Positions 48,156 to 54,951 of a stretch of DNA of 64,000 bases are shown one piece after another. The stretch is taken from contig CALCUM010000002.1 in the NCBI GenBank assembly GCA_937907245.1, positions 434,001-498,000 on the forward strand, written 5' to 3'. This DNA comes from an uncultured Rhodobiaceae bacterium. GTDB taxonomy: Bacteria; Pseudomonadota; Alphaproteobacteria; RS24. The notes below the pieces were generated by a model. It was not told the DNA's origin. It ran no database searches and saw only the letters and a list, made by a program, of their open reading frames with translations. The position numbers were made by a program, and so were the translations under genes. Numbering within the stretch: the stretch's first letter is position 1; every line of letters starts with the position of its first letter.

Positions 48156-48794
48156 ATGACACGCATATATATGATCCGCCACGGCAAGGCCGCAGCCGGC
48201 TGGGATGGCGATGCCGACCCGGGCCTCAACGAGCTGGGCCGTAGCCAAAGCGCGGCGGTGGCTGAGGCCGTGCAAGCGCTGGTGAGCCCGCCTGATTCTA
48301 AGTCGGCAACTATTTACACCAGCCCGCTAAAGCGCTGCCAAGAGACGGCCATTCCGCTGGCGCAAGCCTGGGGTGCCACGCCGAAGATTGAGCTGGGTGT
48401 CTCTGAAATTCCGCCGCCCATCGAAGATTTAACGCAGCGCACAGATTGGTTGCGCCGTGTAATGGCGGGCACGTGGCAGGGGCTTTATGATGACTCGGTG
48501 AGTGTGGCCAGCGGGCTAGATTTCAAAGGCTGGTTCGAGGCCGTGCCGCGCGCGCTAAACGCGATGGCTGCACAGGGCGAGTGTGTGGTTGTGTTCTCGC
48601 ATTTCATCGCGCTGAACGTGGCCTATTGCGCGGCCACGTCGTCGCCAGCGGAGTGGGCTGCGCAAGATGTCATTTCGTTTGCGCCGCAAAATTGCTCGCT
48701 GAATATTTTCGAAACGGACGGCCAAACCCTAACGCTGGTGCAGCAGGGCGAAGAAACCGATGATATGAAGATTGGGCTGGGTAAAAGCACTTAG
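48156..48794 (+). CDS. histidine phosphatase superfamily protein (phosphoglycerate-mutase-like)
   Basis: 212 residues; GAAGGAG precedes the ATG. The phospho-acceptor motif is MIRHGKAA (R8-H9-G10), with the second Arg in YTSPLKRCQETA and the second His in VVFSHFIALNV. Small-molecule or protein phosphatase; the substrate is not predictable. It lies 21 bp after the thiolase-like gene and probably shares its transcript. Its last five codons (GKST, stop) lie inside the first copy of the palindromic repeat starting at 48780. Confidence 0.88.
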   Translation: MTRIYMIRHGKAAAGWDGDADPGLNELGRSQSAAVAEAVQALVSPPDSKSATIYTSPLKRCQETAIPLAQAWGATPKIELGVSEIPPPIEDLTQRTDWLRRVMAGTWQGLYDDSVSVASGLDFKGWFEAVPRALNAMAAQGECVVVFSHFIALNVAYCAATSSPAEWAAQDVISFAPQNCSLNIFETDGQTLTLVQQGEETDDMKIGLGKST

Positions 48795-48936
48795 CAGCTA
48801 TGCTGCCTAGTGCGCCTACCCCCTGCTTAGGTGGTAAAAGCACTTAGCAGCTATGCTGCCTAGTGCGCCGCCGAAGGGACAAGGCGCACTAGGCCAATAA
48901 ATTGGCAGTGCTTTTAGTCTCCCCCTGCTTAGGTGG
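48780..48936. repeat. duplicated palindromic element that can fold into a complete cloverleaf
   Basis: A 37-bp sequence occurs twice (48780-48816 and 48833-48869), the unit with its spacer being 53 bp. The second copy continues into inverted arms, so that 48835-48916 pairs throughout. The outer stem is TAAAAGCACT/AGTGCTTTTA (48835-48844/48907-48916). Hairpin 1 is GCAGC-TAT-GCTGC (48847-48859). Hairpin 2 is CTAGTGCGCC/GGCGCACTAG with a 13-nt loop (48860-48892). Hairpin 3 is GCCAAT-AA-ATTGGC (48893-48906). Only TA (48845-48846) is unpaired at the junction. The 16-bp direct repeat CCCCCTGCTTAGGTGG flanks it at 48819-48834 and 48921-48936. The first copy supplies the stop codon of the upstream gene. 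Confidence 0.9.
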
Positions 48937-48976: not shown

Positions 48977-49300
48977 TTAGTCGGCGGCGGGTTTTCTGTT
49001 GGGTTCTTCGCCGGTTGTTTGTTTTACCAAAATGGCTTTGCCGACGCTGGCTTCTAGGCGGTGTTTGGCTATTTCTTGATACTCTGGCGAGGTGAGCCAC
49101 GCCATGGCTTGTTGTTTGGAGGGAAACGCCATCAGCACCGAGCGGGTGGCGTCAAACTCGCCTTGCAAGACGGTGGGGTCTTCATCGACGCTCAACATAG
49201 TGCCGCCAAATGGCTCGAACACCTCCATAAAGTTTTCTTCATAGCGGTCATATCCGGCGCGATCGTGAATTTTAAACTGAGCGATAATGTAAACGGTCAT
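48977..49300 (-). CDS. DUF1330 domain protein
   Basis: 107 residues, dimeric alpha/beta-barrel (ferredoxin-like) fold expected. Family pattern: YIIAQFKIHDRAGYDRYEENF, VLQGEFDATRSVLMAFPSKQQAMAWLTSPEYQEIAKHR. Function of the family is unknown. Composition is like the rest of the chromosome; it is the last ordinary gene before the AT-rich island. Confidence 0.85.
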   Translation of the reverse strand: MTVYIIAQFKIHDRAGYDRYEENFMEVFEPFGGTMLSVDEDPTVLQGEFDATRSVLMAFPSKQQAMAWLTSPEYQEIAKHRLEASVGKAILVKQTTGEEPNRKPAAD

Positions 49301-49380: not shown

Positions 49381-50259
49381 TTACGCCAATTCTGGAGACG
49401 CTTTAGCTTCTTCCTTAATTTCTTTTTTTGCCACTTCCTTGGTTTCTTCTTCTAGCCCTATTTGCTTCAATCTTTCATTCATGTCGGTCTCATCGGCTGG
49501 CGCATCTGCGAAAATCCATTTACCGAAAGTCTTATTTGCCACTCCGTACACATAAATATTTTTCGATATCTTGCTGGTCTTGGGTGGCTCTATACATTTT
49601 TGCAGAAGAGCTACTACTTTTGGAATAATTGCGTTGAACCTTACCCTAACGAAGTGCTTCCCGTCTGTTCTCATCTCCAGCTCAGCGACGTTGTTACCAT
49701 CGAACTTCATAACTACTTTTTGCTCTCCGTCGCTGTTTTCAACTATTAAATTCTTGGCAAGAGCTGATATTACGTCAGAGTTTTTAAAAACGTGAAATTT
49801 GCCTTCATAAAACACAGATAAATAATTTACTTCTGCGCTGTTAAAAAAGGATTTGTTTAAAAATGCGCTCAAAAGAGCTTTACGTTGAAGGCGATCTTTT
49901 ATATCTCGCATGGGAGTTCTAAGCCTCTCTTGAAACGCTTTTTTGTTATTTTGGTATTCCTTTAAAGTGAGCGGGAAAGCATCAAGGCAGTGGATGAGCA
50001 AAATCCCAATCCCGTTCAAGGCTTGGAAGCCATCATCGTTGATAAAACGATTTCTAGAATATAAAAATATTTGCCATTTTTTCTCCCCACCTTTGACGGA
50101 GTGCGTATCTCCAGACAAATCGACCACATCTTTTTTTCCCTGAGGGTTGTTTTTATACTCTTCGCTGACCCCAATCTCTTGGGCAAAAAGCTTCTCAATG
50201 TGGTGCCCAGTTGTTTTGTATTTTCGCGCGCTGGCTGATGAGGAACCTCTAGATGCCAT
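49381..50259 (-). CDS. probable type II restriction endonuclease
   Basis: 292 residues from ATG 50259 (MASRGSSSASARKYK) with GAGGA upstream; it overlaps the methyltransferase end by 11 bp. I infer the role from position directly behind an adenine methyltransferase and from a possible PD-(D/E)xK-like core: KKDVVDLSGDTHSVKGGEKKWQIF (D44/D47 and K56), in a family-like context where a Lys-rich loop follows. The central part is helical and Lys-rich; the C-terminus (EETKEVAKKEIKEEAKAS) is a charged tail. AT-rich codon use unlike its neighbours. Sequence specificity cannot be read. Confidence 0.6.
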   Translation of the reverse strand: MASRGSSSASARKYKTTGHHIEKLFAQEIGVSEEYKNNPQGKKDVVDLSGDTHSVKGGEKKWQIFLYSRNRFINDDGFQALNGIGILLIHCLDAFPLTLKEYQNNKKAFQERLRTPMRDIKDRLQRKALLSAFLNKSFFNSAEVNYLSVFYEGKFHVFKNSDVISALAKNLIVENSDGEQKVVMKFDGNNVAELEMRTDGKHFVRVRFNAIIPKVVALLQKCIEPPKTSKISKNIYVYGVANKTFGKWIFADAPADETDMNERLKQIGLEEETKEVAKKEIKEEAKASPELA

Positions 50260-51196
50260 TTTTTGGTCCTCTCCAGATAAGAAGTTCATGTGATTTCTTT
50301 ACATGCGAACCCCCATTTTTAGCTTCTCTATTCTCTCCGATGCGCGTGTCACCTTGACCAAAAGTATATTGCCAGGATGGTGTGCTAATTTCGCAGTCGG
50401 AATACCAATCACGAATTATTGGGCAATCATTATAGGATAAAACAAATCCTCCTTTATGCGATAAAAGCAGGTCTCTTAAGCCTTCGTGATTGAAGCCTTT
50501 GTGGTGTATTGGAAAGTTGCGGTGTGGATACATACCCACGAACATCCGACCTTCCTCCAAATAATAAGGTGGGTCGCAATATAGAAAATCGCTTTTGTGC
50601 GCTGGTATCGCTTCCTCAAAGTTGTTGCATCGAACCTCCAAGCCTGGGGCGGAGAATCGACGAACCTTTTCGAGCGTTTTTGAGTACCTAATTTCATTCA
50701 AATAAACATCCGATGGCCAACCAAGAAAGTGGGGGCCGTATGACGTGTTGGAGTTAAAGTAGTACAGTGCTGCTAATTCAAGTGGGCGCAGCTTTCTCTC
50801 TTTTTTCCAATGCTGATTTAGTTTTGCTTTAACCGCTTTGAAGGTGTCCCGATTTGGAGAGAATTGTTTTAACTTTTTATACAGGCCCTGAGGGTTATTT
50901 GTCTGAACTTGCCAATAGTTGCATAGAATGTCAAAAATGTCATAGCCAATCACTTCCATTCCAAGTTCTTTTGCGCATGCTATTTCCACTGAACCGCCCC
51001 CAAAAAACGGAGATACGATCTTGGTTGTGTTGTCAGGTATCTTTTCTAATACATACCCAACGGCCAGGCTTTTTCCGCCAGCGTAGCGAAGCGGAGATTG
51101 CATATACCTCTTAAAGTCTAATTTGCCCGGACTTGCTAACCGTTGTAAAAACTCCTGCCTTAAGGAGGTTGGCGGTATTTTCAGCTGAATGTTCAT
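50249..51196 (-). CDS. DNA adenine-N6 methyltransferase, D12 class
   Basis: 315 residues. Motif order is that of the alpha class (Dam/DpnM-like): X/N-terminal SPLRYAGGKS (about 34-43), AdoMet motif I PFFGGGSVEIA (about 63-73), then a target-recognition region (about 100-190), and catalytic DPPYY (208-212, DPPY). Start ATG 51196 overlaps the stop of the small ORF upstream by 4 bp (ATGA). AT-rich. It should protect DNA against the endonuclease encoded next. Confidence 0.88.
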   Translation of the reverse strand: MNIQLKIPPTSLRQEFLQRLASPGKLDFKRYMQSPLRYAGGKSLAVGYVLEKIPDNTTKIVSPFFGGGSVEIACAKELGMEVIGYDIFDILCNYWQVQTNNPQGLYKKLKQFSPNRDTFKAVKAKLNQHWKKERKLRPLELAALYYFNSNTSYGPHFLGWPSDVYLNEIRYSKTLEKVRRFSAPGLEVRCNNFEEAIPAHKSDFLYCDPPYYLEEGRMFVGMYPHRNFPIHHKGFNHEGLRDLLLSHKGGFVLSYNDCPIIRDWYSDCEISTPSWQYTFGQGDTRIGENREAKNGGSHVKKSHELLIWRGPKNGI

Positions 51197-53436: not shown

Positions 53437-54951
53437 ATGGATATCAAAGAAATTAACGTCGAAGGCCTGGCGCGCGAAGTGCAAATCACCATCGCAGCGA
53501 CCGATCTTGCCAAACAACTCGACGAGAAAATCGAAAGCGTGAAAGGCCAAGTGCAAATCAAAGGCTTCCGCCCAGGTAAAGTGCCGGCCGCGCATGTGCG
53601 CAAAACTTTCGGCGAACAACTGATGGGCGAGATTATTCAAGAGACCGTCAACACAAGCAGCCAAAAAATGCTAACCGACCGCGAAGAGCGCCCCGCCATG
53701 CAGCCAGAAATTAAACTGGTCGGCGAAGTGGACGCCGTCATCGCAGGCACCGCAGATTTGGTTTATGGAATTACCTATGAAGTTATTCCGCCCATTACGC
53801 TGACGGATTTCTCGAAACTGAAACTCGAAAAACCAACCGTCGAAATCGACGAAGCTCGCGTCGAGGAAGCGCTGGAGCGTTTGGCTTCTAGCCGTAAAGA
53901 TTTTGTGGCGCGCGGCAAAACCGCGAAAGCCCAAAACGGCGACCGCGTGAAAATCGATTTCCTAGGTCGCATCGACGGCGAAGCTTTTGATGGCGGCGCT
54001 GGCGAAGGCTTCGACCTTGAGTTGGGCTCAGGACAATTTATTCCGGGCTTTGAAGAGCAATTGGTTGGCACGAAAGCCGGCGATAAAGTAGATGTCTCCG
54101 TAGATTTCCCAGCCGATTATGGCTCCGCTGATTTGGCCGGCAAAGCTGCCGTGTTTGAATGCACCGTGCATGAAGTCAGCGAACCTAAAGACGCTGAAAT
54201 TACCGAAGAGTTCGCAAGCTCTTTGGGCATGGAAAGCCTTGAGAAACTGAAAGAAGCCATGCGCGAGCAAATTGGTACCGATTACAACCAAATGTCGCGC
54301 AGCCATCTGAAAAAAGATCTGCTCGACCAACTGGCTGAGGCGCATGATTTCGATCTGCCGCCGAGCATGGTGGAGATGGAGTTCCAACAAATCTGGGGCC
54401 AATTCGAACAAGAGCTGGCAACCCAAGAGAAGAAAATCGAAGACCTCGATGATAGCGAAGATGATTTGCGCGCTGAATATCGCGACATCGCCATTCGCCG
54501 CGTGCGTACGGGGCTGGTTTTGGCTGAAGTGGGCAATAATAATTCCATCGAAGTGAGCCAAGAAGAGTTAAACCAAGGCCTCATGCAACGGGTGCAGCAA
54601 TTCCCGGGGCAAGAGCAGCAAGTGTTTGAGTATTTCCAACAAAACCCAGAAGCTATGTCGCAAATTCGCGCGCCGCTTTTTGAAGAAAAAGTCGTCGACT
54701 TTATTTGTGAAATGGCCACCGTTACGGATAAAAAAGTATCGCTAGAAGACCTGATGGTCGAGCCAGGTTCAGAAAACGAAGATAAGCCTAAAGCGAAAAA
54801 AGCAGCGGCGAAAAAAGCGCCAGCGAAAAAAGCAGCGGCGAAAAAGCCAGCCGCGAAAAAAGCGCCAGCCAAAAAGCCAGCCGCGAAAAAGGCCGCTGCC
54901 AAGAAGCCAGCGGCAAAAAAGCCGGCCAAGAAAGACGCAGATAAAGGCTAA
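53437..54951 (+). CDS. tig: trigger factor with Lys/Ala-rich C-terminal extension
   Basis: Ribosome-bound chaperone and prolyl isomerase. 504 residues; usual length is 430-450. Ribosome-binding signature GFRPGKVPAAHVRKTFG (about 45-60), FKBP-like PPIase domain (about 150-250, KIDFLGRIDGEAFDGG), and a helical C-terminal chaperone domain. Residues 447-504 are about nine copies of a five-residue unit, [AP][AP]AKK, resembling histone H1 or alphaproteobacterial nucleoid tails. GAGGA lies near the ATG. Start of the tig-clpP-clpX-lon set. Confidence 0.95.
   Translation: MDIKEINVEGLAREVQITIAATDLAKQLDEKIESVKGQVQIKGFRPGKVPAAHVRKTFGEQLMGEIIQETVNTSSQKMLTDREERPAMQPEIKLVGEVDAVIAGTADLVYGITYEVIPPITLTDFSKLKLEKPTVEIDEARVEEALERLASSRKDFVARGKTAKAQNGDRVKIDFLGRIDGEAFDGGAGEGFDLELGSGQFIPGFEEQLVGTKAGDKVDVSVDFPADYGSADLAGKAAVFECTVHEVSEPKDAEITEEFASSLGMESLEKLKEAMREQIGTDYNQMSRSHLKKDLLDQLAEAHDFDLPPSMVEMEFQQIWGQFEQELATQEKKIEDLDDSEDDLRAEYRDIAIRRVRTGLVLAEVGNNNSIEVSQEELNQGLMQRVQQFPGQEQQVFEYFQQNPEAMSQIRAPLFEEKVVDFICEMATVTDKKVSLEDLMVEPGSENEDKPKAKKAAAKKAPAKKAAAKKPAAKKAPAKKPAAKKAAAKKPAAKKPAKKDADKG

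What the first reader, a model, noticed from the sequence alone, without database searches (positions are those of the whole stretch)
48780..48936. Duplicated palindromic element with a fully paired cloverleaf and 16-bp flanking direct repeats
Seen directly: between 48835 and 48916 every base except TA at the junction can be placed in a 10-bp outer stem enclosing three hairpins (5-bp, 10-bp and 6-bp stems). CCCCCTGCTTAGGTGG flanks it on both sides, and the left half is duplicated 53 bp upstream, where it supplies the stop codon of the phosphatase gene. Bacterial REP/REPIN and MITE-type elements combine palindromes in this way, but this exact layout is not one I recognise. It sits 450 bp outside an accessory island. 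It could be a small non-autonomous mobile element, a structured 3' UTR, or a DNA cruciform acting as a recombination hot spot.
Basis: seen in the sequence. Interest (0 to 1): 0.72.

Follow-up and report, generated by a model that had tools for sequence, protein, structure and literature searches.

The report
Palindromic repeats inserted at transcript ends
The odd cloverleaf is three copies of a roughly 40-base DNA hairpin from a repeat family of a marine bacterial group (PS1 clade relatives), which inserts next to tRNA genes and at the ends of other genes and often leaves an unusually long, variable duplicate of the target site, although no copying enzyme of the two kinds tested was found in these genomes.

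Summary
In detail: a 37-bp unit occurs twice in direct orientation, a third inverted copy completes the 82-nt 'cloverleaf' (DNA fold z = -6.6), 16-bp direct repeats flank the inverted pair, and the first unit supplies the phosphatase stop codon. It is not a lone local duplication. The real unit is a 39-nt hairpin (A). A covariance model finds 16 copies in this 1.8-Mb genome, copies in all 12 genus genomes, few in other genera of the family and none in 16 other families tested. Copies keep the stems through compensatory changes (95.6% of cells paired). The cloverleaf is a by-product of two inverted A units, a REPIN-like dimer; more often A is followed by a second hairpin B. Copies sit at gene and tRNA 3' ends (44 convergent, 31 tandem, 0 divergent gaps) and often abut or interrupt tRNA genes. 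Empty orthologous sites and direct repeats of 13-95 bp ending exactly at one hairpin end (16 of 67 isolated copies; 1 of 2000 controls) show insertion with long, variable target duplication. No Y1 transposase (RAYT) or reverse transcriptase was found in any genus genome. Best reading: a new non-autonomous palindromic insertion element with an unknown mobiliser; the mechanism is unproven.

The parts
48782..48816 (-). Hairpin A, copy 1 (TAAAAGC end on the left); carries the phosphatase stop codon TAG at 48792-48794
   Evidence: CM R1 hit 48780-48818, 48.3 bits
48819..48834 (.). 16-bp direct repeat, left copy CCCCCTGCTTAGGTGG; target-duplication-like, only at this locus
48835..48869 (-). Hairpin A, copy 2; left half of the inverted pair (cloverleaf)
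   Evidence: CM R1 hit 48833-48871, 45.5 bits
48870..48882 (.). Linker GCCGAAGGGACAA; its core CGAAGGGAC recurs in other inverted pairs (G[TC]CCCTTTG or its complement)
48883..48917 (+). Hairpin A, copy 3, inverted; right half of the pair; its stem is followed by TTTTAG
   Evidence: CM R1 hit 48881-48918, 55.2 bits
48921..48936 (.). 16-bp direct repeat, right copy CCCCCTGCTTAGGTGG
48156..48794 (+). Histidine phosphatase (branch 1) gene whose last codons and stop come from hairpin A copy 1; the orthologous 3' end is element-free in G003, G007 and G011
   Evidence: PF00300 E=4e-20
48977..49300 (-). DUF1330 gene, convergent neighbour
   Evidence: PF07045 E=1e-25

Best explanation
The finding is one locus of a genus-wide family of small non-autonomous palindromic insertion elements. 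Shown: the core is a ~39-nt, two-step hairpin A with one sharp end (C|GCTAAAAGC). A stands alone, is followed by a second hairpin B (GCGCCAGCG..GGGGC-GCCCC..AGTCGGC), or forms an inverted dimer A-linker-A', which is the cloverleaf here. Copies insert at gene 3' ends and at tRNA termini, and often leave a direct repeat of the target, 13-95 bp long, one copy of which ends exactly at the sharp end of A. Because the duplicate restores the gene or tRNA end, insertion is harmless. Inferred: repeated cycles and unequal exchange give the tandem arrays after tRNA-Ser, -Leu and -Thr. Inferred: a variable-length duplication with one fixed and one variable end suggests copying into a widely staggered or re-primed break (template switching, or reverse-transcribed RNA) rather than a cut-and-paste transposase. 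Also inferred: at convergent 3' ends the hairpins with T-tracts could serve as terminators or 3' stabilisers.
For: Copies: 16 hairpins in this genome and 1-18 in each genus genome. Structure: covariation in all 10 pairs over 136 distinct copies, 95.6% paired against 75.2% shuffled and at most 43% when slid; 7 of 10 pairs on the seed. Position: convergent 44, tandem 31, divergent 0, against 3/14/7 for gaps over 60 bp in the window, p = 6e-12 for no divergent case. tRNA: in this genome 4 of 7 loci lie within 150 bp of an intact tRNA (p = 1e-7), and two further loci (one a weak match) follow tRNA 3' fragments. In relatives the gap to the tRNA is typically 1-2 nt. Insertion: empty orthologous sites. 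Target duplication: 16 of 67 isolated copies have direct repeats (score >=13) ending at the A boundary, against 1 of 2000 random positions (p = 4e-24); lengths 13-95 bp. L137 71/71 identical and L084 95 bp imply recent events. The lepA-like 3' end in G008 is present three times around two elements, once in G006.
Against: Only about a quarter of isolated copies show a clear direct repeat; the rest may be old, or inserted another way. At sites L111:870, L112 and L114 the duplication is only about 4-8 bp. Copies within one genome are no more alike than between genomes (71.3% against 71.0%), so there is no sign of a recent burst. In the window, copies 1 and 2 are identical, so a local 53-bp tandem duplication contributed there. 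Relatives are mostly metagenome bins. Y1 and RT absence was tested only with PF01797 and PF00078.
Confidence: 0.72

Rival explanations
1. The hairpins are functional transcription terminators or 3'-end structures kept by selection at convergent genes and tRNAs; copy number reflects need, not mobility.
For: Only 3' ends are occupied. The stem is followed by TTTT, and three terminator-like sites are found in the window locus (1.0 +/- 1.0 in shuffles). Stems are conserved by compensatory changes.
Against: Empty orthologous sites in close relatives, tandem arrays, copies inside tRNA 5' ends (L073, L096), target duplications. At tRNA and gene 3' ends the hairpin often lies with its T-tract on the opposite strand.
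Confidence: 0.15
2. The window structure is only a local tandem duplication of a terminator.
For: Copies 1 and 2 and their following 16-bp repeat are identical, 53 bp apart; the 16-bp repeat is unique to this locus.
Against: The hairpin and the inverted-pair layout with its linker recur at many unrelated loci.
Confidence: 0.04
3. REPIN or REP elements mobilised by a RAYT transposase.
For: Short palindromes in inverted pairs, extragenic and 3'-biased, as for REPs (PMC3733652).
Against: No PF01797 protein in 12 of 12 genus genomes or in the 4 other family genomes tested. GTAG near the ends at background (2 of 143 on the left, 0 on the right). REPs are not described in PMC3733652 with target duplications.
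Confidence: 0.04
4. Remnants of site-specific integrative elements that use tRNA 3' ends as attachment sites.
For: Duplicated tRNA 3' ends in L016, L074 and L079 and tRNA 3' fragments at L014 and L017.
Against: Targets are diverse (protein gene ends, terminators, tRNA 5' ends), repeat length varies from 13 to 95 bp, and the insert is only 41-108 bp in all but one measured case (133 bp, L127).
Confidence: 0.05

Closest known systems
CGTC-tagged REPs of alphaproteobacteria (PMC3733652; include Neisseria dRS3 and Rickettsia RPE-4/RPE-6)
   Same: Short palindromes, inverted dimers, lie downstream of ORFs, no dedicated transposase known
   Different: Those have one 8-9 bp stem and a CGTC tag; here a two-step 5+5 bp stem, CGTC at the sharp end in only 27 of 143 copies (19%; 4% expected), long target duplications, tRNA association and the second module B. 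Sequence not compared directly with their consensus
REP/REPIN elements with RAYT
   Same: Inverted pairs of a short palindrome, extragenic
   Different: No RAYT/Y1 protein in the genus, no GTAG tag
MITEs
   Same: Small, non-autonomous, empty sites and target duplications
   Different: Target duplication is not of fixed length (13-95 bp); no parent transposase identified
Eukaryotic SINE-type retroposons
   Same: One fixed and one variable end, variable-length target duplication (comparison from general knowledge)
   Different: No reverse transcriptase (PF00078) in any of 12 genus genomes; duplications up to 95 bp are long even for those
E. coli tyrT / rtT tandem repeats
   Same: Tandem repeats after a tRNA that carry the tRNA 3' end (from general knowledge)
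   Different: Restricted there to one locus; no Rfam match here
Mobile hairpins of mitochondrial DNA (double-hairpin elements, yeast GC clusters; PMC4478555)
   Same: Mobile palindromic hairpins, no element-coded enzyme (general knowledge; the paper was located, not read in full)
   Different: Organelle DNA, unrelated sequence

Membership tests
REP/REPIN (GTAG, RAYT-linked) | Short palindrome in inverted pairs, extragenic | tested here: met
   12 inverted pairs with a related linker
REP/REPIN (GTAG, RAYT-linked) | GTAG at one end | tested here: not met
   2 of 143 at the left end, 0 at the right
REP/REPIN (GTAG, RAYT-linked) | RAYT (Y1_Tnp, PF01797) in the genome | tested here: not met
   0 of 12 genus genomes; controls ring in 5 of 14
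CGTC REPs | CGTC tag at one end | tested here: inconclusive
   27 of 143 (19%), 4% expected
CGTC REPs | Single 8-9 bp stem with 4-5 base loop | tested here: not met
   5+5 bp stem with an internal asymmetric loop; definition from PMC3733652
MITE | Fixed-length target duplication | tested here: not met
   13-95 bp; about 4-8 bp at some sites
MITE | Parent transposon with the same ends | not tested
   Only PF01797 and PF00078 were searched; other transposases and integrases were not
SINE-like retroposon | One fixed end, other end variable, variable target duplication | tested here: met
SINE-like retroposon | Reverse transcriptase in trans | tested here: not met
   PF00078 absent from 12 of 12 genus genomes
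Known RNA family | Rfam match at gathering score | tested here: not met
   Only tRNAs

The most novel reading that the evidence does not exclude
A bacterial insertion process that copies small hairpins into the ends of tRNA and protein genes with target duplications of variable length up to ~95 bp, using neither an HUH transposase nor a reverse transcriptase, for example host-driven template switching on hairpin DNA, or an unrecognised enzyme.
Probability: 0.35. Interest if true: 0.78.

Novelty: new variant of a known kind. Interest (0 to 1): 0.6.

Why it matters
Palindromic repeats are everywhere in bacteria, but for many, such as the CGTC REPs, the route of spread is unknown. This family keeps the insertion record: empty sites in sister genomes, recent exact duplications, and a fixed end. 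It occurs in small genomes in which the usual transposase and reverse transcriptase were not found, so the question of how such repeats move becomes testable. It also shows how gene and tRNA ends can accept insertions without loss, because the target is duplicated.

Tried and rejected
Cloverleaf as the conserved unit: the pairing between the two copies is largely kept too (55/60 outer and 46/60 inner cells in 12 pairs, against 115/120 within hairpins), so the cloverleaf cannot be excluded as a structure, but it follows from two inverted copies, and most copies are single. Known RNA family: none. Viral or phage spread: no match for the consensus pattern in viral contigs or for A+B in phages. 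RAYT and reverse transcriptase: absent. The 16-bp repeat as a family-wide site: only at this locus. Recent burst within the genome: not supported. Papers on repeats in this clade: none found.

Full report
Observation. Two identical 37-bp units lie at 48780-48816 and 48833-48869. Two CCCCCTGCTTAGGTGG repeats lie at 48819-48834 and 48921-48936. The 82-nt stretch 48835-48916 has a 10-bp outer stem and three hairpins. As DNA it folds at -26.8 kcal/mol, z = -6.6 against dinucleotide shuffles. The stop codon of the histidine phosphatase gene (PF00300) lies in the first unit (TAG at 48792-48794).

What the unit is. The right half of the cloverleaf, 48883-48917, is an inverted copy of the same hairpin. 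A search of the whole genome with the 157-bp stretch gave several other places. Aligning twelve copies gave a ~39-nt hairpin A, AAGGCGCACTAAGCCAACAAGTTGCCAAGTGCTTATAGC, with an outer 5-bp and an inner 5-bp stem. Different copies keep the outer stem through changes on both sides, such as GCACT/AGTGC, ACCCT/AGGGT and GGGCT/AGCCC. On the seed, 7 of 10 pairs have changes on both sides. On 136 distinct copies all 10 pairs do, 95.6% of cells pair, against 75.2% in shuffles and at most 43% when the partner is slid. The alignment was fitted to the model and leans towards it; the seed alignment was not.

Range. Model R1 finds 16 copies at E < 0.01 in this genome, copies in all 12 genus genomes (1-18 each), few and weak ones in other genera of the family, and none in 16 genomes of other families. 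A consensus pattern in the named genome collection hits only alphaproteobacterial bins, among them a PS1 clade bacterium and two 'Rhodobiaceae' bins (taxonomy). Several of these are the same contigs as the genus genomes here (100% identity). No viral or phage match, no Rfam family.

Modules. A occurs alone, with a second hairpin B (GCGCCAGCGAAGGGGCGAAGCCCCGAAGTCGGC; a B-like tail follows 55 of 142 copies), or as an inverted pair with a short linker (12 pairs). The window copy is such a pair plus one extra A. The end C|GCTAAAAGC is sharp; the other end varies.

Place. With simple gene calls around 88 clusters, of 75 with both neighbours known 44 lie between convergent genes, 31 between tandem genes and none between divergent genes. 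The background for gaps over 60 bp in the window is 3, 14 and 7. In many places the element's own TAA or TAG is the stop codon of the gene. tRNA genes are strongly preferred. In this genome 4 of 7 loci lie within 150 bp of one of 36 intact tRNA genes (p = 1e-7). In relatives the element often starts 1-2 nt after the tRNA 3' end, for Ser, Leu, Met, Tyr and Arg tRNAs. At tRNA-Thr it lies about 75 bp away.

Insertion. The phosphatase/DUF1330 junction is free of the element in G003, G007 and G011 and occupied in G000, G008 and G009, with a decayed copy in G001. Aligned pairs show clean empty sites for G008 loci against G003 and G006. At smpB-like contigs L112 and L113, both in bin G008, one has the element and the other not (the gene name is my reading of the protein end). 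Direct repeats flank many copies, and one copy of the repeat ends exactly at the sharp end of A. Among 67 isolated copies 16 have such a repeat at score >= 13, against 1 of 2000 random positions in the same loci. Lengths run from 13 to 95 bp, median 24. L137 has 71 of 71 identical bases. Some repeats are the last 9-18 nt of a tRNA, some the first 14-15 nt of tRNA-Ser, some terminator T-tracts, some the coding end of a gene. Thus the intact gene is kept beside the insertion. Two of the 16 entries may be orthologues of others (L090/L124, L078/L152).

The window in this light. The pair A2-linker-A3 is flanked by the 16-bp repeat, which fits a target duplication. G001 has one copy of a similar 17-bp stretch after its decayed A and no pair. 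But A1 and A2 are identical, so a 53-bp local duplication must also have happened. The order of these two events is not settled.

Mechanism. The usual partner of REP elements, a Y1 transposase, is missing in all 12 genus genomes, and so is any RVT_1 reverse transcriptase. Fixed end, variable end and variable-length duplication recall retroposition or template switching more than a DDE transposase. This step is inference. A role as terminator or 3' stabiliser is compatible with the place but not shown; the T-tract often points away from the neighbouring gene.

Known kinds. GTAG REPs: tag and RAYT tested, not met. CGTC REPs, common in alphaproteobacteria and without a known transposase (PMC3733652), are the nearest: 19% of our copies have CGTC at the sharp end, but the stem layout differs. 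I therefore call it a new variant of the palindromic-repeat kind, with an insertion signature not described for REPs in that paper (no mention of duplication or target site).

Noticed in passing
window 49381-51196 (-): Dam-type DNA adenine methyltransferase (PF02086) next to an ORF without a Pfam match, possibly a restriction partner. In G002 and G014 the phosphatase is followed directly by tRNA-Leu(tag) and a gene resembling the window's trigger factor, so this gap is a variable spot.
   Followed up: partly
G000 C3:1041670-1041791 and C2:1-321 (L072, L071): A 127-bp tandem array of hairpin A lies at two contig ends next to tRNA-Thr(ggt); probably one array that broke the assembly.
   Followed up: partly
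window 53437-54951 (+): Trigger-factor-like protein (my reading, not tested) with a long lysine/alanine/proline-rich C-terminal tail (AKKAAAKKAPAKK..), histone-H1-like.
   Followed up: no
L014:2967-3018 and L017:1119-1167: tRNA 3' fragments (Met-like and Arg-like) without an intact tRNA, each followed closely by hairpin A.
   Followed up: partly
L015:2293-2380, L151:1963-2051: tRNA-Ser genes where hairpin A directly follows CCGC, so the encoded CCA end seems lost.
   Followed up: no
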